From Opisthocomus hoazin (taxonomy: Eukaryota > Chordata > Aves > Opisthocomiformes > Opisthocomidae), in NCBI RefSeq assembly GCF_030867145.1, contig NC_134436.1, positions 3,906,001-3,970,000 on the forward strand: 64,000 nucleotides of DNA, given 5' to 3'. This document shows, in pieces, positions 20,091 through 61,000 of this stretch (positions within the stretch are counted from its first letter, which is position 1; every line of letters begins with the position of its first letter). Position numbers and translations under genes: made by a program. Under the pieces are notes generated by a model that saw only the letters and a list, made by a program, of their open reading frames with translations, was not told the origin of the DNA and searched no databases.

Positions 20091-22738
20091 CACAGAATCA
20101 TACAATCATTACGGTTGGAAAAGACCTCTAAGATCATCAAGTCCAACTGTCACCCCAACAACCACCATGCTTGCCAAACCATGTCCTGAAGTGCTGTATC
20201 TACACAATTTTTTAATGCCTTCAGGGATGTTGACTCCACCACTTCCCTGGGCATCCTGCTCCAATGTCTGACCACTCTTTCAGTAAAGAAAATTTTCCTA
20301 GTATCCAATCTAAACCTCCCCTGATGCAGCTTAATTTCCTATTGTCCTATCGCTAGTTACTTGAGAGAAGAGACCAACACCCACCTCACTACAACCTCCT
20401 TTCACGTAGTTGTAGAGAGCAATAAGGTCTCCCCTCAGCCTCCTCTTCTCCAGGCTGAACAACCCCAGTTCCCTCAGCCACTACTCATAGGACTTGCTCT
20501 ACAGACCCTTCACCAGTCTTGTTGCCCTTCTCTGGACATGCTCCAGCAACTCAATGTCCTTCTTGAGTGAGGGGCCCAAAACTGAACACAGTACTCGAGG
20601 TGTGGCCTCACCAGTGCTGAGCACAGGGGCACGATCACTTCCCTACTCCTGCTGGCCACACTATTCCTGATCCAAGCCAGGATGCTGTTGGCCTTCTTGG
20701 CCACCTGGGCACACTGCTGGCTCATGTTCAGCCAGCTGTCGACCAGCACCCCCAGGTCCTTTTCCGCTGGGCAGCTTTCCAGCCACTCCTCCCCAAGCCT
20801 GTAGTGTTGCATGGGGTGGTTGTGACCCAAGTGCAGGACCCACCATTTGGCCTTGTGGAACCTCATACAATTGACCTCTTCCCATCAATCCAGCCTGTCC
20901 AGATCCCCCTGCAGAGCCTTCCTACTCTAGGGCAGATCAAGACTCCCGCCCAGTTTGGTGTCATCTTCAAACATACTAAGGGAGCACTCAATACCCTCAT
21001 CCAGATCATTGATAAAGATATTAAACAAGACCGGACGCAAAACTGAGCCCTGGGGAACACCACTTGTGACCGGCCACCAACTGGATTTAACTCCATTCAC
21101 CACAACTCTCTGGGCTCGGCCATCCAACCAGTTTTTTAGCCAGAGAAGAATACACCTGTCTAAGCCATGAGCAGCCATCTTTTCTAGGAGAATGCTGTTG
21201 GAGACAGTACCAAAGGCTTTACTAAAGTCCAGGTAGATAACATCCACAGCCTTCCCTTCATCCACTAGGCAGGTCACCTGGTCATAGAAGGAGATCAGGT
21301 TAGTCAAGCAGGACCTGCCTTTCATGAACCCACGCTGGCTGGGCCTGATCCCCTGGTTGTCCTTCACATACCTGGTGAGCACACTCAATGTGATCCACTG
21401 CACAACCTTCCCTGGCACTGAGATCAGGCTGACAGACCCGTAGTTCCCAGGATCCTCCTTCCGGCCCTTCTTGTAGATGGGTGTTACACTGGCAATCCTC
21501 CAGTCATCTGGGACCTCCCCTGTTAACCAGGACTTCTGACAGATGATGGAGAGTGGCTTGGCCAGCTCCTCCGCCAGTTCCCTCAGCACTCTCGGGTAGA
21601 TCCCATCCAGCCCCACAGACCTGTGAGTGTCCAGGTGACATAGCAGGTCGTTAACTGCTTCCTCCTGGATTACGGGAGATTTATTCCACTTTCCAACCCT
21701 GGCTTCCAGCTCAGGGGACTGAATACCCTGGGAATAATTGGTCTGATTATTAAACACTGAGGCAAAGAAGGCACTAAGTACCTCAGCCTTTTCCTCATCC
21801 TTGGTGGCAATGTTCTCCCCCACATCCAAAAAGGGATGGAAATTCTCCTTTTCTCTCCTTTTGCTGGTAATATATTTGTAAAAATATTTTTTGTTATCTC
21901 TTACAAAATATTTTTTGTTATCTCAAGTTCTAGCTGGGCTTTTGCCTTTCTCATTTCCTCTCTGCACGACCTAATGAGATCCCTGTACTCCTCTGGGGTT
22001 GTCTTCCCCTTCTTCCAAAAGTGGTAAACTCTCATTTTTTCCTGAGTCCCAGCAAAAACTCCCTGTTCAGCCAGGCAGGTCATATTCCCCGCCGATTTAT
22101 CTTATGGCACATGGGGACAGCCTGCTCCTTGCAGAATGTCCAGCCTTCCTGGACCCCTTTGCCTTTCAGGACTCTGTCCCAGGAGACCCTCCCAAACAGT
22201 GTCCTGAACAGGCCAAAGTCTGCCCTCCAAAACTCCATGGTGGTGGTTTTGCTGTCCCCCGCTTCTTTGCTTCATCAAGAATCAAGAGCTCTATCATTTC
22301 ATGGTCGCTACGCCCAAGACAGCCTCCGACCACCACATGTCCCACCAGTCCTTCTCTGTTAGTAAACAGCAGGTCTAGCGAGGCACCTCCCCTGGTAGGC
22401 TCACTTACCAGCTGCATCAGGAAGTTATCTTCCACACACTCCAGGAACCTCCTAGACTGTTTCCTCTCTGCTGTGTTGTATTTCCAGCAGACATCCAGTA
22501 AGTTGAAGTCCCCCATGAGAGCAAGGCTAGCAATTGTGAGACTTCTGCCAGCCACTTGTAGAATGCTTCATCTACCTCTTCATCCTGGTTGGGTGGTCTA
22601 TAACAGACTCCCAGCAGGCTATCTGCCTTCTTGGCCTTCCCCCTCATCCTTACCCATAAGTACCCAACCTTACCATCACAATCGTTGAGCTCCACACAAT
22701 CGAAACAATTCCTAACATACAGAGCCACCCCCATTCAG
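20091..22738 (-). mobile_element. CR1 LINE, 5'-truncated, about 2.65 kb
   Basis: A minus-strand CR1 retrotransposon. The 3' end is at 20091 (cacagaatcatacaatcatt on +). Reverse transcriptase spans about 20930-21830, with blocks [52 protein letters not shown] and a catalytic box read as FEDD where FADD is usual. Part of the endonuclease follows at about 22170-22735 (GVALYVRNCFDCVELND; GVCYRPPNQDEEVDEAFYKW). The 5' end is lost inside the endonuclease and ORF1 is absent. The frame is broken between the endonuclease and RT parts, and a short direct duplication (aaatattttttgttatctc, twice) sits at about 21883-21924. It looks dead but relatively young. Confidence 0.95.
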
Positions 22739-29988: not shown

Positions 29989-30936
29989 ATGGTGATGTTT
30001 GGTAGCATCGTTGGCTCTGCAGACCGGGTGCTGCGGAGGGGGCTGTGGGGACTGATGCTGATCTTGTCTGTAGCCATATACGGCTCTCATGCTCCCCTCC
30101 TGACCCTGTGCAAGGTGAACGGGATGATCCCCTTCAGCTCCACGTCCGTCGTGGTTCTTGTTGAGCTGACAAAACTGGTGTTCTCCCTCCTGTTCCTGCT
30201 GACTTGGGACTGGGAGCTGCTGGGAGTTGCCGTGTCGTGGCGCCATGTTGTCCCCTTCGCCCTCTCTGCCTTGCTCTATGCTGCCAACAACAACCTGGTG
30301 GTTCACATGCAGCTCTTCATGGATCCCAGTACCTTCCAAGTCTTGAGTAACTTAAAGATCGTCAGCACCGCGCTCCTCTACAGCCTCTTCCTGCGCCAGA
30401 GACTCAGCATGCGCAAATGGCTGGCGCTGTTCTTGCTGGTGGCTGCTGGAGTGAGCTACAGCTGCGGTGGCCTGCAGGACCCTGGCAGCCCCTCCAAGAT
30501 GCAGCTCCACATCACGCTGGTGGGCCTGTTGCTGATCTCTGTGTACTGCCTGATATCAGGCTTGTCTGCTGTCTACACGGAAGCCATCCTGAAAACCCAG
30601 GCGCTGCCTCTCAGCCTTCAGAACCTCTTCCTTTACTTCTTTGGGGTCCTGCTCAACTTGATCGGCTACTTCTGGAGCAACGCAGAGGGTGGTTTCTTGG
30701 AGGGCTTTTCTTCCTGGGTCCTGGTGATTGTGGTCAGCCAGGCCTTGAATGGCTTGATCATGTCCATGGTCATGAAGCACAGCAGTAACATCACCAGGCT
30801 CTTCGTGATCTCCTGCTCTATCCTGGTCAACGCCCTCCTGTCTGTTGCCCTCTTCAACCTGCAGCTCACCCTCCTCTTCTTCGTTGCAGTCTCATGCATC
30901 GGACTCGCTGTTCACTTGTACTATGGGGTCACATAG
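29989..30936 (+). CDS. SLC35A4: Nucleotide-sugar-transporter-like SLC35A4, 315 aa, single coding exon
   Basis: Golgi multi-pass protein of the SLC35A family; the human protein has been linked to CDP-ribitol transport. The frame is uninterrupted for 315 codons (human 324). About ten hydrophobic segments are visible. Family signatures include YGSHAPLLTLCKVNG, LSALLYAANNNLVVHMQ, MDPSTFQVLSNLKIVSTALL, YCLISGLSAVYTE, LQNLFLYFFGVLLNLI, QALNGLIMSMVMKHSSNITR and a C-terminal GLAVHLYYGV. Two ATGs stand at the start (M-V-M); I took the first. It is the second cistron of a transcript whose first cistron is the microprotein, so its translation probably depends on re-initiation or leaky scanning. The 3' UTR runs to ATTAAA at 31879-31884, converging on the minus-strand kinesin-like gene. 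Confidence 0.96.
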   Translation: MVMFGSIVGSADRVLRRGLWGLMLILSVAIYGSHAPLLTLCKVNGMIPFSSTSVVVLVELTKLVFSLLFLLTWDWELLGVAVSWRHVVPFALSALLYAANNNLVVHMQLFMDPSTFQVLSNLKIVSTALLYSLFLRQRLSMRKWLALFLLVAAGVSYSCGGLQDPGSPSKMQLHITLVGLLLISVYCLISGLSAVYTEAILKTQALPLSLQNLFLYFFGVLLNLIGYFWSNAEGGFLEGFSSWVLVIVVSQALNGLIMSMVMKHSSNITRLFVISCSILVNALLSVALFNLQLTLLFFVAVSCIGLAVHLYYGVT

Positions 30937-31878: not shown

Positions 31879-31884
31879 ATTAAA
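31879..31884 (+). terminator. SLC35A4: Poly(A) signal ATTAAA of SLC35A4
   Basis: ATTAAA is followed by the T/GT-rich TTGCTGTTC and, further on, GCGTGTTTGTC, a plausible downstream element. It lies about 940 bases after the transporter stop and about 130 bp from the opposing poly(A) signal of the minus-strand gene. Confidence 0.6.
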
Positions 31885-32010
31885 GTTGCTGTTCAAAAGC
31901 ATGCGCGTGTTTGTCATCCCTGCAGAAGGGCATCTGTTTTGCCTGGCAGAGGTTTGGGGTCCGGGGACACATCTGAGCCTGACAACACCCATTGGTGACG
32001 GGGTACCCAC

Positions 32011-32016
32011 TTTATT
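32011..32016 (-). terminator. Poly(A) signal AATAAA of the minus-strand kinesin-like gene
   Basis: TTTATT on + is AATAAA on minus, 375 bases past the stop codon of the kinesin-like gene. This is the first good signal downstream of the stop and gives a compact 3' UTR. Confidence 0.6.
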
Positions 32017-32390: not shown

Positions 32391-35300
32391 TCAGGGCGTC
32401 TGCGTGGCAGCATCGGCCGAGCCCGGCCATCTGGCGTCCCGCAGCTGCCGGTTGTGCGCAGCGAGCTCCACGGCGTCTCGGAGCACCTCCTGCAGCAGCC
32501 CCCGGTGCCGGCGGTCCAGTGCCTCCCTCTGCTCCTCTGCCTGGTGCTGCTGGTCCTGAAGCACCTGCAGGAATGGCTGAGGCTGCCTGGCACAGCCCTG
32601 GCAGCCCGCAGGTCTGTCCCCAGCCCTCCCTGCCCACCTGAAGCAGGTGCTCCCTGCAGGCCTGCCTCTGCTGCCGCTGGCTCTGCAGCAAGGCCTCCAG
32701 GTCCCACTCGGCTGCTTCCCGCTGCCTCCGCTCTGCCTCCAGGCTCAGGCCCAGTGCGGCCACCTCCTGCTGCCAGCGAGCTGTGTCCCACTGCAGGGCA
32801 CGGGGATGAGGACAGGGCAGCTCTGGGGTGTCTCTGCTCCTTGGGGCTGCCCTGCCCTGGGAGAGCAGAGCCTGGAGTGCATGGTGAGGGGCTCTCTTCA
32901 CACGCCCACCTCCGTTGTCACTTCCTGGCCTGGTGCTGTCCCATCCCTGAGCTCTCGCTGGAGGAGCAGGCAGTGCTGAGCCCGCAGCCGCTGTCTCTGC
33001 GCCTTGGCCAGGGCGTACTGGACCTCCAGGGACGGGCGCTGGCTCCCTGCCTGGCAGAGATCACAGCCGGGGGACGCAGTGCTGCTGCCGCAGAGGGCTG
33101 CAGGCCCTGGGCGCTGCTCCTGCCCAGGAGCAGCCAGCAGGGACCCAGTGGGCTCCCCCTCACCGTGTCACTCCTGGTCAGTGGCCACGGCTGTGGTGCT
33201 TCACTCGGTGAGGGCTCCTCCAGCGAGCCCTGCCCTGCATTCCCCAGGGCTTGGCTGTCCCCTCCCTGGTTGCTCTCACTGGCAGCCGCTCCTGGGTGGG
33301 GAGAGGGAAGGAGAATGAGAGGGCTGTGGCAGGGCTGAAGAAAGCAGATTCAACGAAGGACTGAGGCCTCTTCCAGCCCAACCAAAGCCATTTCCCACCA
33401 TGTAAAGCAATGCTCTGTGCCCACATATCCGCTACCCAGGCGTGGGCTGCATGCCTGGCCCCACGCTCTGGACCTGCTGGCCCCAGGCTGGCCCCAGTTG
33501 GGGGCAGTTGGGTCTCAGCCTGCTGGCCTGGCTCAGTATTCCCTCCAGAGACCTGGTCCTGTGGGAGCAGGAGGAGATGTTATGGGGACGCAGCCAGGAC
33601 TCAAGGCTTCTCCTGAGCCTGGGTTGTCCCTGGATGGGCGGCTGTGGCGTGACCTGCGCCCACCTTGGCACCAGGCTGATGCATCTGGCTTCTGAGTGCC
33701 TCGGCTGCTGCCTTCTTCTTCTCCCACCTTTGGCTCTTCAGCACCTGGAAGAAGGGGCTGGGGGTCCTTGTAGGGGTGCTGGAGACCTCAAGACATGGTA
33801 TAGCTCCAGGGACACACCCCACTCCCACTGTCTCACCCCCCAGGCAGGCAGCCCCCGGCCACTGCCCTCAGTGCCTGGGCAAGGGTCTTGACACCAGGAC
33901 AGCGCCTGGACCTCATCTGACCAGGGGAATTGGTGCCATCCTGGTCCTGTCTGGTGGCCAGGGGCATTTCCCCACCTGCAGCTCCCGCAGGGCTCTCCGC
34001 AGCCGGGCCACAGCTGTCTTCTGCTCAGGGAGGCCAGCTCCGGCCAGCAGCTCCATCCGCAGCCCTCGGATCTCCCTCCGACGCGCTGCGACCTCTTGCG
34101 CAGGGTCCCAGAGGGTGGCTGAGATGGGTTTGGCCAGCCCCTTCACCCGCTCAGCCAGTGCCAGGGACGCCAGGATCTCTTCTCTGGGGGTGTCTGGGAG
34201 AGCAGCGAGCCCTTGGCAGGGTCCACCAGCACAGGGACGTCCCAGTCCCCTGACAGGGAGGAGTGGAGCCGGCATCCGGCTTCCAATGCCTGCGGGCATC
34301 CCCGGGCAGCAGCCAGGGACCGAGTGCCAGGCGTGGGGCAGGGCAGGGGGGGAATCCCAGGGAAGGGGCACTCCGAAGCGGCGTCCCGGTCCCAGGGGCT
34401 ACCTGGCAGTGTCACACACAGCAGCAGGAATGTCAGGCTGTTCCCCTCCAGCAGCCGCTCGACGATCCAGGGCAGGCAGCTGGCACCAGGCAGGGGACGG
34501 TCAGTGGCTGATGCCCTGTGTGTGGGGCAAGAGACACCCTGGGAGAGGGATGGGGCTGGGACCCACACGCCCGGGGAAGGCTGAGCTCTGACCCACAGGA
34601 GCCTGAGGATGGGTTAGCCATGCCGGGAGCAAGCCCGCGTCCCGGGGGGTGGTAGCAACCCCTTGGCTCCCAGCCACAGGCTCCTGTTAGGGTGCCTGGG
34701 TCCATCCTGCTTCACCTCTGGGTACTGAGTGCCCCCTGACCACACAGCAGGCACCGCGGGGGTGCTGGAGAGGGGACCAGCTCCGGTACGTACGGCTCAG
34801 GGCAGGGCCGGGCAGCCCCGGGGAATGCCAGGATCCTGAGGGCCGAGCGCCAGCACCGGCCGCCCTGCGTCTCCCGCTCCACGGTGAGCGTGAAGAGGCT
34901 GCCGGCACTAGGGAGAGGCCGGCAGGTGAGCAGGCCTGCGGCAGCACCCCAGCACCCCCCGGCTCAATCCTTCCCAACCCCGCGGCGTATCAGCCAAATC
35001 CCTCACCCCTGCATGGCCGAGTGCCCATCTGCGGGGGGCTGCAGTGCCAGAACAGCACCCAGCCCCCAGGCATAGGCACTGATGGCAGCTTGGGCATCAG
35101 GCACGGCGATTTCCGTTGCCTCTTCCACCATCCTGGAAGCAGAGGGAGATAAGAGCAAGCGAGGAGGGCCACGTCCACCCACCTCCTGCCTGCCTGGGCT
35201 CCCCGAGCCATCCTCTGGCTGGACACCGTGCTCGCTGCCCAGCCCCATGCTCAATGTTGGGGTACTGGCACCCCAGGAGTAGCTGCCCAGCCGCAGGGTG

Positions 35301-37887
35301 TCGGGTACCTACAGGCCCAGGGGTGCGACATCCATCACTTGCAGAGCTCGGCCATCAGGACGGAGCAGGTCCCAGACTTTGTCGTGGGCACTGACCTGCA
35401 ACGAGCCTGCGTTAGGCAGGGGGGGCAGAAAGAGGGGGCTGCTGGCATCCCGCACTCACCGGGGCCCCCGGTTGCTTATGGCCCTGCACAGGTCAGGGCT
35501 GGGAAGGGAGAGCTGCCAGGGTCACTTCCAGCTTTTCCAGCCCCAGGGCCAGGGAAAGGCAGAGTGCAGAGCTTGGCAGGTCCCTGGCAGCATCCTGAGG
35601 GCGAAGGGCAGGGCCCAGCCTGGCAGCAAGAGCTGGCATCGCTCCTGTGCCAACCAGGGACGTGCTGGAGGGACATTCAGACCACAGGGAGCAGTGGCTG
35701 GCAGGAAAAGCCCAGCCACACGATGGGAAGGAAGGTGTTAGAGGTCTCACCAGTTACCACCTTGCTGCTGGAGCCTGGGAAATGCCCCGTGGGCACCCAA
35801 GGCTTCCCACGCCTGGGAAGTCCTACGAGGAGGTGAGAAAACCTGGAATCTGAAAGTCTTCAGCCCCTGGTCACCGTACATCCCAAGGGACAGGATGCCA
35901 GTACTGGGGCAATACACGCCCCTCGGTGCAGCAGGGTCCGGCCAGTGGCAGAAGGGGAACAGGACCCCACCCCAGGGCATCCTGGCCAGCCCTGCTCCTG
36001 CCCTACCTGGACCAGGCTGACAGTTTGCAGACTCTGTGTGTCAGCCCCCAAGGCCTCCAGTTCTTGGAAGACGGTGTTGATCACCTGGGGACAAGCTGGT
36101 CAAGCTGGGAGCCATTGGTTCTTGGCACCAGTGGCTGGGTCTCACCCATACCAGCAGGACTGGGGTCAGTTGGACAACCCGAGAGCCCAGCACCATGCAG
36201 TTGTGCTGTCACCTCTCCCCTGCCGTGCCCTGTGCCCTCACCTGCCAGACAATGCTCTGGAAGGGTAGCTGGGTCCCAGGGCCGTGGAGGTCCCACAGCA
36301 GCAGGGACACACTGTAGCCAAGGGGAACCAGTGCCAGCTGGGGTCTTGCCAACTCCAGAACCTGCTCCTGGTAGGAGAGACATAGCCAGCAGAGCAGGGA
36401 TGGCATGACACGACCAGCGTGGCACAGCACGGACAGCGTGCTGCAGATGGCCCAGCACAGAGGGCATTGGCACAGCTAGCACAGCACAGGCAGCCCGGTA
36501 TGGATGGCACAGTGTAGATGCACAGCATGCATGGCATGGCACGGCATGGCACGGATGGTGTGGCACCACGGTGCGCAGCACACCAGAGAAAGCATGGCAT
36601 GGGCAGTAAGGCACAGACAGCACAGCACAGCATGGCAGCTACGTCCCAGGACCCAAGAGGAACCAGGGGAGGGGTGAGAAACACCAGCAGGACACTTGTA
36701 CGACCACAGCCTGGGTCCCCAGCACACCTGAGGGGGTGGCAGCGGTGCCCAGTGGCCCCAGGACCTCAGCTGGATGCCCCAGCCCATGGCTTGGGCCAGC
36801 ATGTCCCTGGCTCATCTGGCTGGGGACAGGGGTGCAGAAGGACTTGGGCTCACAATACCTGTCCTGCATCCAAGCGGAAGATGCCATCCACTGTCAAGCC
36901 GTTGCCCTGGCAGGAGGAAGGGAGTGTGATAATGTTCAGCTTCCCCCCATTCCAGTATGACCAGTGCAGGGTAAAGGAGGGACTGGGCACATTGGGATGG
37001 AGGTGGCAGGGGTGGCATGGAGGGCCTGGCACAGCCTTGGGGGGTGGGGGGAGACCCCCCTCCCTTCCCCTGCTACCAGGTAACCCCCACCAGCCCCCAC
37101 CAGAGAGGAGCCTGGAGGGGTGTAGGGCAGGATCAGCCTAAGACCTCAACACCCATCAGGGTCCCGAGCGTGGCGTGTGGCTGGGACAGGGCCCCTGCTC
37201 CCATCTGGTTGCCTGGGGACCCTCGTCCCCTTGATACCCATGTCCCTGCCACTCTCACCTGGACCTCCTTCCCAGCAAAGAGAAGCTGCAGGGTGTCTTC
37301 ACTGATGGCCTCCTGGCTTTCCCCTGGCCCTGAAAACACTGAGTGTGGGGTGGGGCAGAGGGGGGCATCCACACCTGCCCCAGCTCTGTGCCCGCCCTGC
37401 AGCCTAGGGCCAGGTCCCAGGGCTTCGTAGTGTCCCCGAACCCTCCCACTATGGCCACAGTGCTCAGAGCCACGGGGGTGGGGAGGACGCTCCCTCCCCA
37501 TCACCGCCTCCCAGGCCAGCCGCACCAGCATGGCCAGTGATCCCAGTGCGGCCGTGGCTGTGGCTGCTGCCCTCGCCCAGTTCACTGGCGTGGGGGTTCG
37601 GGCTGGAGGCGCAGGGATGCTGCGGGTGTCCCCAGCCCCAGCTCTACCTGCTGCCTGGTGGAGTCCCACGGCTGCTCGCACGCACACATCCTGCTCGGCC
37701 TGCCAGGACACGGAGCAGAGGGGAATGAGCCAGGTCCTGCCCCATGCGCCCAGCACCTGCCAGGAGCTGCATGAGCCCCTGGGGAGCTGGGCAGTGCCTG
37801 GCCATGCTGCACCGCAGGCAGGGGACAGATCCCTCCAAACCACCCTGTGATGTCTCCCATGATGGCACTCACCTCCCCAGCGTCCAT
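32391..37887 (-). CDS. Kinesin-like pseudo-motor protein with C-terminal coiled coil, 16 exons, about 550 aa
   Basis: I do not recognise a named orthologue. Exons in transcript order: 37887-37873, 37699-37648, 37329-37259, 36906-36859, 36361-36242, 36084-36007, 35395-35313, 35132-35007, 34907-34794, 34479-34403, 34193-33976, 33744-33664, 33265-33164, 33050-32910, 32790-32638, 32564-32391. All are GT-AG; the total is 1653 nt, in frame. Residues 1-334 follow the kinesin motor in order: DVCVRAAVGLHQ (strand 1); LTVDGIFRLDAGQ; LARPQLALVPLGYSVSLLLW, then WDLHGPGTQ where the P-loop GQTGSGKT belongs; TVSLVQVSAHDKVWDLLRP; DGHSAMQGAGSLFTLTVE for switch I; LRILAFPGAARP for DLAGSE; LLEGNSLTFLLLCVTLP; REEILASLALAERVKGL. 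The Walker lysine and both switch signatures are gone. The rest (396-545) is Arg/Gln/Glu-rich coiled coil ending AATQTP. The start codon and exon 13 acceptor are least certain. Confidence 0.72.
36410..36645. repeat. Degenerate CAGCA/ATGGCACGG-type simple repeat
   Basis: Short imperfect tandem units rich in GGCA, such as catggcatggcacggcatgg at about 36529-36548, lie in an intron of the kinesin-like gene. There is no clear unit length. It is low-complexity DNA without further signal. Confidence 0.6.
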
Positions 37888-40177: not shown

Positions 40178-41533
40178 TCACGCTTTGTGGCAGGGCCAGA
40201 CGAGCCCGGGCCTGGATCTGACCAGGCAGACGGCCCCGGCCACGCCAAGCAGGGTGAGGGCAATGCAGACAGGGGCAATCACTGCAGCACTGTTACACTG
40301 CAGCACCGAGACCGGCACGTCCTTCACCAGCCTGCCCTGGTAGTGAGGTGGGGAGTGACATGTGTATTCCTCGGGCCAGCCCTGCCCAAGCTGCCCCATG
40401 CCCGCCAGTGCCTGCAGCGCCCCGGCCCCAGAGCACAAGCAGTTGTAGGGGTTGCCAGCCGCAGCCACATTCCGCAGGTGCCCCAGGAGCTTCACCTCAT
40501 CCCATGGCAGCTCTGTAATTAAGTTGTTGTCTAGGTGGAGAGTGTCCAGCATGGGGTAATTCATGATGGAGGGGGCAGCCTGCAGCATGTTTTGGCTCAG
40601 GAAGAGTTTCTTCAGGGAGCTGAGGGAGATGTCTACAGCATGGAGGTGGTTGCAGCTCATGTCCAACACTTCTAGACCGGGAGGCAGAGGTGTGAGGACT
40701 TCATCCAAGCCGGTGTCAGACAGGTTAAAGATTCGGAGAGACACTGGCCACTGGCAGGGGTAGGATGGGTCTGCCATGAGCTTATTCTGGCTGAGATCTA
40801 GATGCTGGAGCTCGTGCAGCAGCTGCACACTTTTGCATACGCTGTGGTAGGATGTCAGGTTGTTGTGTTGCAGGCTCAGTACCTGGAGCTGAGGGAAAGC
40901 CCCCTTGCAGAAGGCAGGTATCAAGCTCTCATCCTCAAGGCTGTTTTGTGCCACATCCAGGGAGCGCAGATCTCTGAAGACCCTTCCGATGCCACAGGGC
41001 AGGCTGGTGACATGGGAGCCAGTGACAGCCAGCTCCTGCAGGGTCTCCAGCCAGCGGCTCAGATTAGAGAAGCCCTGCTCACGGCCCGTCAGCGGTGCAG
41101 ATGTCACGTTGTGGAAGTGCAGGGACAAGATGGGCAGGTTCTGGCCTGCCATTTCATCCCAGTCGCCCCTCCCCTCAAAAATGCAGCTCTTAAACACCAG
41201 CTCCTGCACTTTGGTGTAGGAGAAGAACCTCAGGACTCGGGCGAGGAGTATCTCAGGCACCAGGAGACCACCAAAAATTATTTTCCTGATGACAAGGGAG
41301 CCCAACATTTCAATGGCAGAGGGGTCCAAGTCGCTGATAGGGAAGGCTACATATTGCTCCAGGTCTCCCCCCCAAAACTCCACGACAGAGGCTGGGAGGC
41401 ACTGGATGATGCTTGTTATGCTTTCCTGGGACAGGTTGTAGCACACACAGTGCTCCTGAGTGCGATTGAAGAAACACCTGCCTTCTGCCTCCAACAGCCC
41501 CAGCCCCAGGAGGAGGAGGACAGCCACATTCAT
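40178..41533 (-). CDS. CD14: Monocyte differentiation antigen CD14, transmembrane form, 451 aa
   Basis: LPS co-receptor that passes lipopolysaccharide from LBP to MD-2/TLR4. The start is the ATG at 41533 (MNVAVLLLLGLGLLEAEG signal peptide), not the in-frame ATG 17 codons upstream. An acceptor-like CTCATTTCTAG lies 10 bases before it, as in mammals, where an intron sits next to the CD14 start codon. An N-terminal Cys-rich cap (CFFNRTQEHCVCYNL) precedes about 11 leucine-rich repeats (LQVLSLQHNNLTSY, LQHLDLSQNKLMAD, LEVLDMSCNHLHAV, LDTLHLDNNLITEL), and an LRR C-terminal cap holds NPYNCLC and YTCHSP. The C-terminus is a clear membrane segment (SAAVIAPVCIALTLLGVAGA) followed by a basic tail RSRPGLVWPCHKA, so the protein should be membrane-spanning rather than GPI-anchored as in mammals. 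It is longer than human CD14 (375 aa). The TMCO6 gene follows head-to-head on the other strand. Confidence 0.96.
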   Translation of the reverse strand: MNVAVLLLLGLGLLEAEGRCFFNRTQEHCVCYNLSQESITSIIQCLPASVVEFWGGDLEQYVAFPISDLDPSAIEMLGSLVIRKIIFGGLLVPEILLARVLRFFSYTKVQELVFKSCIFEGRGDWDEMAGQNLPILSLHFHNVTSAPLTGREQGFSNLSRWLETLQELAVTGSHVTSLPCGIGRVFRDLRSLDVAQNSLEDESLIPAFCKGAFPQLQVLSLQHNNLTSYHSVCKSVQLLHELQHLDLSQNKLMADPSYPCQWPVSLRIFNLSDTGLDEVLTPLPPGLEVLDMSCNHLHAVDISLSSLKKLFLSQNMLQAAPSIMNYPMLDTLHLDNNLITELPWDEVKLLGHLRNVAAAGNPYNCLCSGAGALQALAGMGQLGQGWPEEYTCHSPPHYQGRLVKDVPVSVLQCNSAAVIAPVCIALTLLGVAGAVCLVRSRPGLVWPCHKA

Positions 41534-41752
41534 GGTGAACAACCTAGAAATGAGGAGAGCAATGGTGAAAGGCAGCACTCTCACGGCAGCCGAGGAGACC
41601 GTTCAGGTCCAGCTGACTGGAGGGCTGCCTTGAGCAGGTTCAGCCACCGAGAGCCACCTCTCAGGGACACAGCGCTGCCCTCGTCCCTCTGCCCAACTGC
41701 CCTTCGCATGGCTCCAGCGCACCCCATCAGCACCCGCCTGGCTACTCAGTCA

Positions 41753-41759: not shown

Positions 41760-44336
41760 GGGCAAAGCTCAAATCACCAGTGAAACACCCAAGAGCTGCA
41801 CCTGTGCCACCCGCTCCTTGGCAGCAAGTCGGTGGCACTGGTCTCACCCCACCCCAAAAGCAGGGTTTCGGCAAGGCAGGGTGGCTCCTCCTGAGGCAGC
41901 AGCTGCCGGGCTCTGTGCTGTCCTGCCTGGGCTGCCTTGCTGCAGACTCCTGTTCCCAGGCGACCAGGAAATACCACGGATGAGGAGCAACTAGAAATGT
42001 TGAGTTACGGACAGTGAAGCCAGATATATCAGTCTGACTGCAAGACGGGAGAGCCACAGCTCTGTTTGTTTCTCTGCATGGTGCGCCCTGTAATCTGGGG
42101 CAGGAAATTGCAACAGAGGGCTTCATATTTTCCTTTTTCTCACCCAGCGATTAGATTCATTACCAGCCTCCAAGGGGATAGCAGAAAATCATTTCTGAGG
42201 GTCTGTATGCACCGCTGTCAGCACTGAGTATTGCTTTGCTGTCCAGCTGAAGGGAAAGTCTTATCAACAGATTGCAACAAAGCAGCAAGATTAAAGGCTC
42301 CCAAGAATGTGCTGACTCAGCTCTGTTCGAGCACCCAGACAGGGCAGTGGCGAGGAGTACTTGGGGGTCTCCAATCCAACCTCCTGCTTCGAGCAGGTCT
42401 GTTGCCAGCACTAGTCCCGATCAGCCACAGCTTTTCCTGGCCGCATCTGAAAAAACCTCTGAGGACAGAACTCTCCCTACCTCTGTGCCGTCGTGGGCTG
42501 CACCACCCTCCCACGGGGAAGCTCTTCTCCAGCACTGGCGCGAAGTCCCCCTCTCCGGGGGTGCAGCACGCAGCGGGGTAGGTTTGTCCAGTGACTCACC
42601 AGTCAGCTCACGCTGAAATGTTTCCTTGCCCCACAGCTGCTTCCTCTAGTTGCTGCCAAATCCAGGGCTAAGGTGCCAAAGGCTTTGCAAGTGCTTGGCT
42701 CTCTCCTGTGCCTGATCCTCCGCTGCCTCCAGACAGACGAGACCTCAGTGCCTGCAGGTGTCTTCCAGCTGCCGTTGGCACTTCCGCAGCCCGTCCCGCC
42801 TGCGCTTAGACCCGCGCGGCTGGGGCTGGGGGGCACCCGAAGGCAGGCTCCCGGGCGCTGCCCTTGCTCCCGCTGCGTGATTTCCTGAGCAGGACGGGGC
42901 TGGCTGTGCCACGGGAAGCAACACGCCACGCAGCAACCGCCCAAGTCACTTCTGCTTCGCCTCCCTGCAGCAACGGGCTCTTGCAGCTGCAGGCTGGGGT
43001 TTTGGTCGACATGCCAGTGCTGCTCACTTTCCTAGTAAGGATGGGGGAAGAGAGTGCGGTCACGGTGCCCTAAACACATGCTCGGGACCAGCCCAAACAT
43101 GCATTTGCTTCCAGATGCTCTGAGCTTGCTGTGCCTCGGAGACCACTGGGTGCTGAGCACCCTGCAGGAGGTAATGCAGAAGGCAACGGGACTGTCATAC
43201 CCACTGTCCAGACCACCCCCAGATGCCTGTGTCCCATGTAGGACGGGGACAGGACAAAGTCCCATCAACTGTGTGCACAGCCCAACATTGCGAAGGGCAC
43301 ATCTTCACCCAAAGTTGGCTTCCTTGGCCAGCTGGCTGCTTGGCTTGGCCAAGGAACTCACGTCACTTGCCACGTGCTCCTTTGGCAGCTGGTGGCGGTG
43401 CCTACATCAAGACATTAACGATCTCCATCAGCGAGCGGAGACCAGCAGGCACTGGGAAAGATCTGTCAGGGATTTTTTCTTCCCCGGGGATTTCTCTGCC
43501 CCTGTTGGATTTCAGAAAGATTTTCAGAAAGGCAATGAATCTGCACAGCTAGAAGATGCAATTCCCAGTTTGTTTTTGTTAACGCAGCATTGCAGACAGG
43601 CACTATCCGTGTGAAAACAGCTGGGCAGGAGCTGCCTGTCCCACGCACTCTGGCACTCTGCTGCTGGGATGGGTGAAGGGGAGGTCTCCTTTCGGTCCTC
43701 ACATTTACTGCAGCTCATTTTCTTGCTCCTGGCATCTCAGGAGGAGTGCTGCACCGTTTTGCTGCCTTTCCCTGAGCAATCCCTTCTGCAGAGGCGTTCA
43801 GCCATTCCATGATTCCTCTTCTCGATCCTCGGGTTACATGAAACTGCTGCTGCACGCACCACGGAAAACTCCTAGCAGCACTTCTGAGTTCTCCTCGCTA
43901 CTCCTCTTGGTGAGGCTGGCAGCTCTGTTGGGGCCTGGTACCTTTTAACTGCTCATTCCTAGCCACCAGCTGCAAATTCTCCCAAATATCTTTCTGGGGA
44001 AAAAAATCTCCTTGGCAGCCAGCCACGCCCCGCTTCAAACACTTGTGGTTTTGGAGCCACCTTTTGGGTGATTAATTTCTTGTTGTCGTCGCCAGCGTGG
44101 CAGATCCCAGGACACCGAGAGCCATTGCCTTACATTGCCGGTGAGTGTCTGGGCTTTTTTTGCTTCAGCAAACACGCAGTTCAGCCTGTGGGAGCAGAAA
44201 CCTCGCCTGCGCCTGGAGGCTGGCTGGTTTCAGCCCTGCAAGGCCAGAGGAGTTCATCCTCTGCCTGGTTTCCCCCTGCCACGCACGCTTGTGTCTGTGT
44301 CCCTGTGCACAGGCCCTGCACCCCATCCCTGGAGCC
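41760..44336. other. Intergenic stretch between CD14 and the minisatellite
   Basis: No coding exon recognised. About 42355-42435 resembles a decayed CR1 3' end (ctccaatccaacctcctgct, then cagcactagtcccgatcagcc) but is short. The rest is moderately GC-rich with scattered open frames on both strands. This is the shared upstream region of CD14 and TMCO6, so regulatory elements are likely but not visible beyond single motifs. Confidence 0.4.
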
Positions 44337-45320
44337 AGTCACTGCGCCGGAGATGATGGCCACTGTGGCAGAGACGGTCACTGCGCCGAAGAGGGTCACC
44401 ACACGCTTCCAAAGAGGGTCACCACGCAGTCCCCAAGAGCGTCACCACACGCTTCCAAAGAGGGTCACCACACACTCCCAAAGGGGGTCACCATGCCAAA
44501 GAGGGTCACCGCGCGGTCCCCAAGAAGGTCACCACACAGTCCCTAAGAGGGTCACCATGCGGTCCCCAAGAGGGTCACCACACCAAAGAGGGTCACCACA
44601 TGCTTCCAAAGAGGGTCACCATGCCAAAGAGGGTCACCACATGCTTCCAAAGAGGGTCACCATGCCAAAGAGGGTCACCGCGTTGTCCCCAAGAGGGTCA
44701 CCACGCCAAAGAGGGTCACCACACGCTTCCAAAGAGGGTCACTGCGCAGTCCCCAAGAGGGTCACCACACCAGAGGGTCACCACACCAAAGAGGGTCACC
44801 ACGCGGTCCCCAAGAGGGTCACCGCACCAAAGAGGGTCACCACACACTCCCAAAGGGGGTCACCACACCAAAGAGGGTCACTGCGTGGTCCCCAAGAAGG
44901 TCACCACACAGTCCCTAAGAGGGTCACCATGCGGTCCCCAAGAGGGTCACCATGCCAAAGAGGGTCACCACACACTCCCAGAGGGGGTCACCATGCCAAA
45001 GAGGGTCACCACGCGGTCTCCAAGAAGGTCACCACACAGTCCCTAAGAGGGTCACCATGCGGTCCCCAAGAGGGTCACCACACCAAAGAGGGTCACCACA
45101 CGCTTCCAGAGAGGGTCACTGCGCAGTCCCCAAGAGGGTCACCACACCAAAGAGGGTCACCACGCGGTCCCCAAGAGGGTCACCGCACCAAAGAGGGTCA
45201 CCACACACTCCCAAAGGGGGTCACCACACCAAAGAGGGTCACCACGTGGTCCCCAAGAAGGTCACCACACAGTCCCTAAGAGGGTCACGGCGCGGTCCCC
45301 AAGAGGGTCACCCAGCGAGG
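44337..45320. repeat. Minisatellite of alternating 23-bp and 18-bp GTCACC units
   Basis: About 980 bp of tandem units that all begin GTCACC and end in AAGAGG or a close variant. Long units are 23 bp (for example GTCACC+ACACGCTTCC+AAAGAGG) and short ones 18 bp (GTCACC+ATGCC+AAAGAGG); they alternate in higher-order blocks. The strand is open in several frames, giving PKRVTT/RGSPHQ-type repeats up to about 400 codons, which I regard as by-products of unit lengths and absence of stops in the motif. It abuts the TMCO6 CpG island. Confidence 0.95.
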
Positions 45321-58000: not shown

Positions 58001-61000
58001 TGAGAAGTACAGGGATCGAGCCAAGGAGAGGAGAGATGGTGTGAACAAGGACTATGAGGAAACGGAGCTGATCAGCACAACTGCCAACTACAGAGCTGTG
58101 GGGCCGACGGCAGAGGCGTACGTGAGCCTGCGGCGTGGCCTTGTCTTCCCAGTCTGCTCTAGAGGGTCTGTCTTGTAACTGACTCTGTTTTTGTTGCACA
58201 GGGATAAATCTGCTGCAGAGAAGAGGAGACAGTTGATCCAGGAGTCCAAGTTCTTGGGTGGTGACATGGAGCACACTCACTTGGTGAAGGGTCTGGACTT
58301 TGCACTGTTGCAGAAGGTGAGCACAGATATCACCATGCTGCTCCTCTTCTACCCTGTCCACTCCCACAGGCAGAGAGGGTGGGCAGAGGGTAGTAGCAGC
58401 CACTTACAGGTGCTTTAGTCTTGTCAGTCTGAATTTCTTCCTCTGGGAGAGATTTATGAAGAGTTGGGGAGCTGGTGGAAGTAGGCCTACTGGTTCTGGT
58501 GAGCAGCAGTGGCATGGATTGGTCTGTAACACATGGGTTTACTCTGTGGCCAGGTACGGGCTGAGATTGCCAGCAAGGAGAAGGAAGAGGAAGAAATGAT
58601 GGAGAAGCCCCAGAAAGAAACGAAGTGAGTGAGTGAGGATTTTGCACTCCAGAGTGCAGCAGCCTCCCAGAGAGGAGGATGCAGAGGAGGCATACACTTA
58701 GCGTAATACTTCTGTTTCTTTTCTGTTTCTGTTCAGGAAAGATGAAGATCCTGAGAACAAAATTGAATTTAAGACCCGGCTGGGTAAGACTGTGTGGATG
58801 TGGCTGTTGCCCACCTTATGTTGTGACCTGAATGCGGAAGAAATCTTAAAGGGTGACTGGAGGAATGAAAACCTTAAATCATCAAAGGGGGACAGTCTCA
58901 AGTGTAGGCATCTTGAATTTGAGGGATGGAGGAAGCATGTTTCTTCAGAGGTGATGCTGATGTTTCTGATAACCTAAATGTGCTTTGCTGTGGGCTTGTC
59001 CATCGCTCTCGTAGGAGCAGCTCTCCCATGCGTTTCCCTCCCCTCCAGGTCGCAACATCTACCGCATTCTGTTCAAGAACAAGGCCTACGAGCGGAATGA
59101 GCTGTTCCTGCCAGGGAGGATGGCCTACGTGGTAGATCTGGATGATGAGTATGCCGACACCGATATCCCAACCACGCTGATCCGGAGCAAGGCTGACTGC
59201 CCCACCATGGAGGTACCCACCAAGCATCCAGGTTGCCTGACTGCATTGGTCAGAGCAGGTGTTGCTGGGAGGAGTTCCCTGCCAGGGGAGTCGGACGCTT
59301 CCTCGGGGATTTCTCTTTCAGGCACAGACGACACTGACCACCAATGACATTGTCATCAGCAAACTGACGCAGATCCTCTCCTATCTCAGACAAGGGACCC
59401 GCAACAAGAAGCTCAAGAGGAAAGACAAAGGTAGGAGCTGAAGGGGAACCAAGAAGTAGGATTTAATGCTTGAAGCGTGTCCCAAGAGAATGAGATGTGT
59501 TTTGGTTTGCTGCATTCCCCTGTGCCATGAGGCGGTGGACTTAGAGGACAGTGATTTCCTGTAGTTCCCCAAGCGCTGCATCCTGAAGGCAGGCTGTTCT
59601 GCAGAGAGACCACAGGGGACTGCCTGCGAGGGTGGCTCATGCTGCTATGCTCAGGCCCAGTTCCTTGAGGAAATGTCCCCTGTTGGGGAGGGACACAGTG
59701 GCTTTCTGAGGGGGCTAGATGTGATGTGGTAACCAAACAGGGAGTCAGGAGGACACCTTCCAGGCCACCACGTTTGGGGCTTGGACGCTAGACTGGGGAC
59801 AGGGAAACAGTGCGGGTGGCGGAGTGGATGATATGCCTCTCACTGCTCTTGTGTCCTTGCAGGGAAGCTGGATGAGAAGAAGCCCCCTGAAGCTGATATG
59901 AAGTAAGTGCCTCCCTCCCCACAGGCTGTGGGGTCACAGCTCTCTGCCTTAAGGAATGTCTTTTTTGTACCACTGGGTTTGGAGAGGGCTGGGTTTAGTG
60001 CTTCTGGAGCAAGCTGCCTTGTTGGACCTGCAGTTTGTAGGATAAGGCTAGAGGCAAGCTCTGGGTTTTATCTCAAGCTTGAGGCAGGCAAGGGCTATCT
60101 GTTGTCTTGGTCTACCAGAAGCAGGTCCAGGCAGCAGAAGGGAGCGGAAAAGCGGTGATACCTTTGACAGATGTAGAAGTGAGTTCTAATGGGCATCCTA
60201 GCTCTCCATCTTGGTGCTGTGTGCTGCTTTAGTAGGTTCCAGTTCAAAGGGAGATGGTCGTGGCCTCTTCTCTTGCACCACCTGTAACTGCAGGCTCTTT
60301 TCCACTCATAGCATCTTTGAAGACATTGGGGATTATGTGCCCTCCACTGCAAAGATGCCACGGGAGAAGGAGCGGGAGAGGTACCGGGAGCGTGACAGGG
60401 ACCGAGAACGTGACCGGGAGCGTGACAGGGACCGGGAGAGGGACAGGGAGCGTGACCGTGAGGAGGAAAAGAAGAGGCATAGCTACTTTGAGAAGCCCAA
60501 GGCTGATGATGAGGTGAGCCTCTGCTCGTGAAGCCTGGACTGTCCCACCTGATCTCTGCCTTTGGGGAGTGCAGCTGTGGGCTTGGTGGGGTCACCCTGG
60601 TGGCTTTGGGTGTCTCTGGTTGTGCTCCTGCACATGCCAGTGTTCGGGTCTTGCCAAGCTGTCTCTCCAGCCAGGGGCTGGTGGGTGGTTGGGTGCTTCT
60701 CCTCTCCTTCAGCAAACAAGGCAGGACTAGCACAAGCCAGTAGCTTTGATGGTTCAGCTCTGTGCTTGCCACGAACAGTCTTAAAGTGGAGCTGCAAGTT
60801 GTGCAGCACTGTCATTTGCCTGCTTTCAGCCCTCACGGGTGACACAGTATCTCTTCCTCTTCTTTGCAGCCCACAGACATCGACAAAGGTGAGTGAAGTG
60901 GTGTGGACGTTTGAGTGAGGCCATACAGGGTTGCAGAGTGCAGAACTGCTTAGCTTGCTGTCCTGCGTGAGCTCCCTGCTCTCCCAGGGACTGCTGTGGT

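What the first reader, a model, noticed from the sequence alone, without database searches (positions are those of the whole stretch)
32391..37887. Kinesin-like gene with a degraded motor between SLC35A4 and CD14
Sixteen minus-strand exons with GT-AG junctions concatenate to a 1653-nt open frame. The first 334 residues follow the kinesin motor block by block (VCVRAAV, TVDGIFRLDAGQ, LARPQLALVPLGYSVSLLLW, VWDLLRP, SLFTLTVE, LLEGNSLTFLLLCV, EEILASLALAERVKGL). I know of no gene at this place in human (SLC35A4 is followed by CD14). Seen: the exon chain and motif order. Established: the kinesin motor motif order. Inferred: common descent. It could be a bird- or sauropsid-retained gene lost in mammals.
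Basis: partly seen in the sequence, partly recalled or inferred. Interest (0 to 1): 0.88.

Follow-up and report, generated by a model that had tools for sequence, protein, structure and literature searches.

The report
Dead-motor kinesin gene beside CD14
Between two well-known genes in this bird genome lies an intact, undescribed gene for a kinesin-shaped protein whose ATP-burning site is gone, and relatives with the same loss occur in turtles, lizards, salamanders and some mammals, so the dead motor seems to have been kept for a purpose.

Summary

It is not a bird relic. Searches returned 73 proteins from birds, turtles, crocodilians, lizards, six mammals, three caecilians and axolotl, mostly 'uncharacterized'. 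None has a Walker A P-loop, SSRSH or DLAGSE (59 of 73 cover the P-loop site). The stretch before helix alpha-5 is 21 (turtle) to 27 (window) residues short. The fold core is kept, so this is a conserved non-motor kinesin fold.

Reptile copies end in an LC8 (dynein light chain) type motif; birds keep a weaker xQT form. Best guess: a dimeric, nucleotide-free scaffold, LC8-clamped in reptiles. Shown: gene, homology, lost motifs, conservation. Inferred: scaffold role, LC8 binding, no motility. 'Lost in mammals' is not supported; human status was not tested.

The parts
37873..37887 (-). exon 1 (15 nt), start codon, MDAGE
   Evidence: MDAGE also in owl P0001, MDAGQ in turtle P0020
37648..37699 (-). 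exon 2 (52 nt)
   Evidence: GT-AG; aligned in owl
37259..37329 (-). exon 3 (71 nt)
36859..36906 (-). exon 4 (48 nt), kinesin TFD..F block (LTVDGIFRLDAGQ)
36242..36367 (-). exon 5 (126 nt), helix alpha-1, strand beta-3 GYSVSLLLW and lost P-loop (DLHGPGTQ)
36007..36084 (-). exon 6 (78 nt)
35313..35395 (-). exon 7 (83 nt), VWDLLRP block
35007..35132 (-). exon 8 (126 nt), PLGLMVEE..E..V block (spans the exon 7/8 junction) and start of lost switch I region
34794..34907 (-). exon 9 (114 nt), SLFTLTVE strand and lost switch II (RILAFPGAA)
34403..34515 (-). exon 10 (113 nt; acceptor corrected from 34479 by owl homology), helix alpha-5 block LPWIVERLLEGNSLTFLLLCV
33976..34193 (-). exon 11 (218 nt), end of motor fold and neck helices
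   Evidence: by homology to the turtle model
33664..33744 (-). exon 12 (81 nt), neck block with nearly invariant W (QVLKSQRWEKKK)
33399..33558 (-). exon 13 (160 nt; donor corrected from 33474 by owl homology), variable linker
33164..33291 (-). exon 14 (128 nt), variable linker
32910..33050 (-). exon 15 (141 nt), start of helical tail
   Evidence: owl model
32638..32790 (-). exon 16 (153 nt), tail helix
   Evidence: owl model
32391..32564 (-). exon 17 (174 nt), tail helix, C-terminal xQT motif (ADAATQTP), stop
32011..32016 (-). poly(A)-like signal about 375 nt after the stop

Best explanation
The gene encodes a conserved non-motor protein that belongs, by descent, to the kinesin superfamily. 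The N-terminal head keeps the kinesin fold but has lost the P-loop, both switch motifs and much of loop 11 and helix alpha-4, so it should neither hydrolyse ATP nor step along microtubules. Neck helices follow the head. A variable linker leads to a roughly 100-residue helical tail that may dimerise, and in reptiles the tail ends in an LC8 (DYNLL)-type xQT motif that would clamp the dimer; birds, this window included, keep a weaker form of it. It most likely works as a scaffold or adaptor that uses the kinesin fold as a protein-binding surface. Shown: gene structure, homology, fold prediction for two homologues, absence of catalytic motifs in the returned homologues, conservation. Inferred: no ATPase, weak or no microtubule binding, dimerisation, LC8 binding, scaffold role.
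Against: No expression, binding or knockout data. A heptad test supports a coiled coil only weakly in turtle and axolotl tails (p 0.04 and 0.07 for the best stretch) and not in the window (0.20), lynx (0.58) or the first tail helix of turtle (0.51). LC8: the published seven-residue motif is met letter for letter in 0 of 44 C-termini, the older [K/R]xTQT class in 10 of 44, all non-bird; of 15 bird C-termini 11 have xQT, followed by P or S, 0 fit my widened motif and 4 songbirds have TQS; no motif in the 6 mammals (4 of them reaching the tail end region) or 4 amphibians. So LC8 binding is unlikely to be ancestral and is doubtful for this species. The window protein alone is below Pfam's cut-off, and chicken and the two mammals scanned give no Pfam hit, so the head is still eroding there. 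Against turtle it is less conserved than CD14 (40.8% and 50.4%). No codon-level selection test was possible.
Confidence: 0.55

Rival explanations
1. Non-catalytic partner head: the protein pairs through its tail with an active kinesin and serves as a passive foothold, as Cik1 and Vik1 do for yeast Kar3.
For: A dead head plus a helical region is the Cik1/Vik1 plan (PMC4338441, passages seen). The fold is kept although catalysis is gone.
Against: Cik1/Vik1 heads still hold on to microtubules, while here loop 11/alpha-4, the main microtubule contact (established knowledge), is cut by about 21 (turtle) to 27 (window) residues. No candidate partner was identified.
Confidence: 0.15
2. A gene in decline: a dead kinesin relic drifting to loss, still open by chance in this species and perhaps already lost in other lineages.
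For: Pfam score falls from 88 bits in a caecilian to none in chicken and two mammals. No primate, rodent, frog or fish protein was returned (the first two scored only a capped set of about 8,000 candidates). Two records are flagged LOW QUALITY (P0010, P0045).
Against: Long homologous proteins in all main tetrapod groups returned, 23 invariant columns in an alignment of 14 from amphibians to birds and mammals, transcript-length contigs of lizard-like homologues, and conservation equal to CD14 between two birds.
Confidence: 0.2
3. The head still binds microtubules without nucleotide and acts as a static tether or ciliary structural protein, in the manner of a kinesin-9 in the sperm central apparatus.
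For: Foldseek ranks two chains of the mouse sperm central apparatus (9ijj c and d) third and fourth for the turtle model; the PLGLxVE block at the loop 8 position is strongly conserved.
Against: Shortened loop 11/alpha-4. No X-box excess: 103 loose matches in the window against 97 expected, none between 37085 and 38846, which includes the stretch before exon 1 (X-box consensus recalled). That chains c and d are KIF9 is recalled.
Confidence: 0.15
4. Chance exon chain, no gene.
For: None beyond high GC, which lengthens open frames.
Against: Whole-length homologues in other tetrapods at E down to 2.4e-266.
Confidence: 0.01

Closest known systems
Kinesin-3 motors (KIF13B, KIF1A, KLP-6)
   Different: No FHA domain or other Pfam tail domain up to E 1 that belongs to kinesin-3; no nucleotide site. 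For motor-only constructs kinesin-8, KIF19 and KIF1A tie or beat KIF13B, and the neck alone does not single out kinesin-3, so assignment is open.
KIF26A/KIF26B and VAB-8 (kinesin-11)
   Same: Kinesin-fold proteins thought to lack ATPase activity (PMC13228590, passages).
   Different: Known from nematode to mammal with roles in neuronal migration and axon guidance. No direct comparison was made here.
Cik1 and Vik1, non-catalytic partners of Kar3 (kinesin-14)
   Same: Kinesin-like head without catalysis joined to a dimerisation region (PMC4338441, passages).
   Different: Yeast kinesin-14 partners whose head lies in the C-terminal part (Vik1 351-647) and binds microtubules. Here the head is N-terminal and its microtubule face is shortened.
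LC8/DYNLL client proteins
   Same: Reptile tails end in xQT[DE] (28 of 29 non-bird C-termini), the published motif class (PMC3078936, abstract and passages), after a long helix.
   Different: Binding untested; motif weak in birds (xQT then P or S, 11 of 15) and absent in mammals and amphibians.

Membership tests
Kinesin superfamily (by descent) | Motor-domain fold | tested here: met
Kinesin superfamily (by descent) | Significant sequence match to kinesin motors | tested here: met
   Profiles E 4.2e-14 and 9.7e-21; window alone E 9.5e-5
Kinesin superfamily (by descent) | Pfam PF00225 above gathering score | tested here: inconclusive
   Window 19.3 of 29.3 bits, so not met by itself; met by 5 of 10 homologues scanned
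Kinesin motor (ATP-driven) | Walker A GxxxxGK[ST] | tested here: not met
   0 of 73 proteins, 59 of which cover the site; caecilians keep GK but not S/T, axolotl keeps KT
Kinesin motor (ATP-driven) | Switch I NxxSSRSH | tested here: not met
   0 of 73; some records are cut and lack the region
Kinesin motor (ATP-driven) | Switch II DLAGSE | tested here: not met
   0 of 73; DL[VT]GE in the 3 caecilians only
Kinesin motor (ATP-driven) | Full loop 11/helix alpha-4 microtubule face | tested here: not met
   46 residues in 1goj, 25 in turtle, 19 in window between switch II site and alpha-5 (counted by eye); a 7-residue helix remains in the turtle model
Kinesin motor (ATP-driven) | ATPase and motility | not testable with these tools
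   needs protein
Kinesin-3 | FHA domain after the motor and neck | tested here: not met
   Pfam scans of window and 10 homologues list none up to E 1
Kinesin-3 | Motor and neck closest to kinesin-3 | tested here: inconclusive
   Top ranks but ties for motor-only chains; neck profile not specific
Kinesin-11 (KIF26/VAB-8) | Closest relationship to KIF26 | not tested
   No KIF26 sequence at hand
LC8/DYNLL client | LC8-type motif | tested here: inconclusive
   xQT in 40 of 44 sauropsid C-termini, but published seven-mer exact in 0 of 44 and [KR]xTQT in 10 of 44, none in birds; window ends ADAATQTP
LC8/DYNLL client | Direct binding | not testable with these tools
   needs protein

The most novel reading that the evidence does not exclude
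A tetrapod kinesin lineage, absent from the human-based KIF naming, lost its ATPase before amphibians and amniotes split and has since been kept as a scaffold (LC8-linked in reptiles) whose head is a pure protein-binding module, sitting unnoticed beside the immune gene CD14.
Probability: 0.38. Interest if true: 0.75.

Novelty: new variant of a known kind. Interest (0 to 1): 0.6.

Why it matters
Kinesin families are mostly catalogued from human and mouse (general knowledge). A set of homologues across amphibians, reptiles, birds and some mammals, with the catalytic motifs gone in every returned copy that covers them, would be a kinesin branch missed by that catalogue and a natural test of what a kinesin head is good for without ATP. 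A published gene list for this interval in anole and human has nothing between SLC35A4 and CD14 (PMC2764143, passage), although anole has a homologue (P0058; its position was not tested). The caecilian and axolotl copies, with half-kept P-loops, give testable steps between motor and non-motor.

Tried and rejected
Bird-only or sauropsid-only gene: rejected by mammalian and amphibian homologues. Chance exon chain: rejected. Reading GYSVSLLLW as the P-loop itself: rejected; the profile alignment places it on strand beta-3, with the P-loop site in the next eight residues.

Kinesin-3 assignment: tested by profile, fold and neck profile; left open (in one search the best hits are H-NS and ribosomal L29, with one 'kinesin-like protein' at E 0.3). 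By title, no KIF26 chain stands among the 50 rows shown in each; that is no evidence against it. A ciliary promoter lead (X-box) was at chance. A whole-tail heptad test gave no signal (p 0.33 to 0.53); a 28-residue window test was weakly positive for turtle and axolotl only. A first junction test on the multiple alignment was uninformative because insertions in other rows counted as gaps. Repeated pairwise, ungapped junctions were 14 of 16 with owl, 11 of 16 chicken, 8 of 16 turtle, 8 of 16 lizard P0052, 8 of 15 P0054, 9 of 12 P0061. Two junctions gapped with owl (9 and 13) led to the corrected exon edges.

Literature, 10 searches. The identifiers LOC107054473, LOC101953166, LOC109290180, LOC101815805, LOC110082121 and LOC120498611 occur in 0 papers held; kinesin with SLC35A4, CD14 and chicken in 0. 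Only open-licence PubMed Central papers were searchable. Papers were seen as search listings or passages; none was read whole.

Not possible or not done: RNA-seq junctions, codon-level selection, human, mouse, fish or frog genomes, synteny in mammals and amphibians. The third protein search (one caecilian region, 3494 candidates) returned only amphibians; it missed even the turtles, so its silence on fish and frogs says little.

Mended on re-check: the LC8 motif is weaker in birds than I first wrote, so I lowered the best explanation from 0.60 to 0.55 and the novel case from 0.40 to 0.38.
Full report
What is there. On the minus strand of the window, between SLC35A4 (ORF 29989-30936, plus strand, nucleotide-sugar transporter domain) and CD14 (ORF 40178-41584, minus strand, leucine-rich repeats), 17 exons with GT-AG introns join into one open frame from ATG 37887 to stop 32391. 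The first chain gave 589 residues. Comparison with the owl homologue showed two edges to be wrong. The exon 10 acceptor lies at 34515 and the exon 13 donor at 33399, which adds 12 and 25 residues and gives 626 aa, with 498 of 616 aligned residues identical to owl. The other forward frames of the joined 589-codon sequence hold 11 and 12 stops, the reverse frames 3, 6 and 10. An AATAAA lies at 32016, and SLC35A4 has a poly(A)-like signal at 31879, so the two genes converge tail to tail.

How widespread? Three protein searches returned 47, 40 and 4 rows, 73 distinct proteins: 63 counted as sauropsid (birds, turtles, crocodilians, lizards, and six from unnamed contigs placed by similarity), 6 mammalian (Condylura, Lynx, Monodon, Acinonyx, Crocuta, Megaptera) and 4 amphibian (Microcaecilia, Geotrypetes, Rhinatrema, Ambystoma). 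The first two searches scored only the roughly 8,000 candidates sharing most words, so the list is not complete. Rows are clusters and include isoforms. Most named ones are 'uncharacterized', 'hypothetical' or 'unnamed'; a few say only 'kinesin motor domain-containing', and others carry names that disagree with each other (KIF3A, KIF4A, KIF17, CENP-E, klp-20, CD14, GULP1-type adapter). In a manakin (P0010) and a turtle (P0050) the annotators fused this protein to a CD14-like protein, which shows the same neighbourhood there; synteny was not tested elsewhere. Two proteins of 614 and 549 aa from an unnamed source, closest to lizards, lie on contigs of 2056 and 1842 bp. As the bird gene spans 5.5 kb with 16 introns, these are most likely spliced transcripts (inference). 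Between window and manakin this protein is 75.7% identical, CD14 73.3%; against turtle 40.8% and 50.4%.

What is lost and what is kept. Strict Walker A, SSRSH and DLAGSE occur in 0 of 73 proteins; 59 of the 73 cover the P-loop site, the rest are cut. The caecilian Rhinatrema has GSQGSGKD at the P-loop and DLTGE at switch II; axolotl has GKDSPEKT; the turtle P0020 EAHCAGTK; the window DLHGPGTQ; mammals lack part of the loop. Pfam scores fall in step: 88, 65 and 61 bits in amphibians, 49 and 47.5 in gharial and turtle, 23 and 22 in lizard and owl, none in chicken and two mammals. Between the switch II site and the alpha-5 leucine kinesin 1goj has 46 residues, turtle 25, the window 19 (counted by eye). 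The missing stretch is mostly loop 11 and the first half of alpha-4, the main microtubule contact (established knowledge); a 7-residue helix remains in the turtle model. Kept are GY[SN]VxLL, PLGLxVE..E..V at the loop 8 position (in amniotes), the alpha-5 block with LEGN, and a neck block with a nearly invariant W. So catalysis was probably already gone or crippled in the tetrapod ancestor and the fold stayed under constraint, while birds and mammals eroded further (inference; independent losses are not excluded).

The tail. The models show a single helix of about 100 residues. A coiled coil is weakly supported in turtle and axolotl and not in the window or lynx. Of 63 sauropsid proteins, 44 carry the tail block near the end (the other 19 were dropped as cut or misannotated). 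In 40 of these 44 the end holds xQT, against a shuffled mean of 6.9 that ignores relatedness. In 28 of 29 non-bird C-termini D or E follows; in 15 bird C-termini 11 have xQT followed by P or S and 4 songbirds have TQS. Against the published LC8/DYNLL motifs (PMC3078936), the seven-residue form [D/S]K x [T/V/I] Q [T/V] [D/E] is met exactly in 0 of 44, [K/R]xTQT in 10 of 44 (none birds), and a form that I widened to allow E, R, H, M and S in 21 of 44 (none birds). Such motifs are often next to coiled coils. The six mammals and four amphibians lack it (two of the mammal records are cut before or at the tail end).

Mechanism. I think the most likely role is a dimeric scaffold without nucleotide, its kinesin head used as a binding surface and, in reptiles, its dimer clamped by LC8. 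Rivals are a passive partner head for an active kinesin (as Cik1/Vik1, PMC4338441), a static microtubule or ciliary element, and a relic in decline. The deciding data (expression, dN/dS, ATP and microtubule binding, partners) were out of reach.

Known or new? Dead kinesins are known (KIF26/VAB-8, PMC13228590; Cik1/Vik1). I found no paper on this gene in ten searches (listed under Tried and rejected). A printed gene list for anole and human passes from SLC35A4 to CD14 (PMC2764143). I therefore call it a new variant of a known kind: kinesin by descent, not a kinesin motor, subfamily open.

Noticed in passing
window 44389-45312: A 23-bp minisatellite, about 43 copies (AAGAGGGTCACCACACGGTCCCA), which creates artefact open frames such as the 403-aa one at 44068-45279.
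   Followed up: partly
window 20927-21829 (-): Reverse-transcriptase fragment (PF00078 E 9.3e-23), by recall a CR1-type LINE of birds.
   Followed up: partly
window 60379-60456: 30-bp tandem repeat, 2.6 copies, that could code an Arg-Asp/Arg-Glu run, perhaps an exon of the IK (RED) gene that follows TMCO6 and NDUFA2 in the list of PMC2764143.
   Followed up: no
P0010 (Manacus), P0050 (Mauremys), P0012 (Limosa): Public annotation fuses a CD14-like protein and the kinesin-like protein into one prediction in P0010 and P0050; P0012 carries the CD14 name but matches only the kinesin-like protein.
   Followed up: yes
window 31879-32016: Poly(A)-like signals of SLC35A4 and the kinesin-like gene are only about 140 bases apart on opposite strands, so their 3' ends may overlap.
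   Followed up: no
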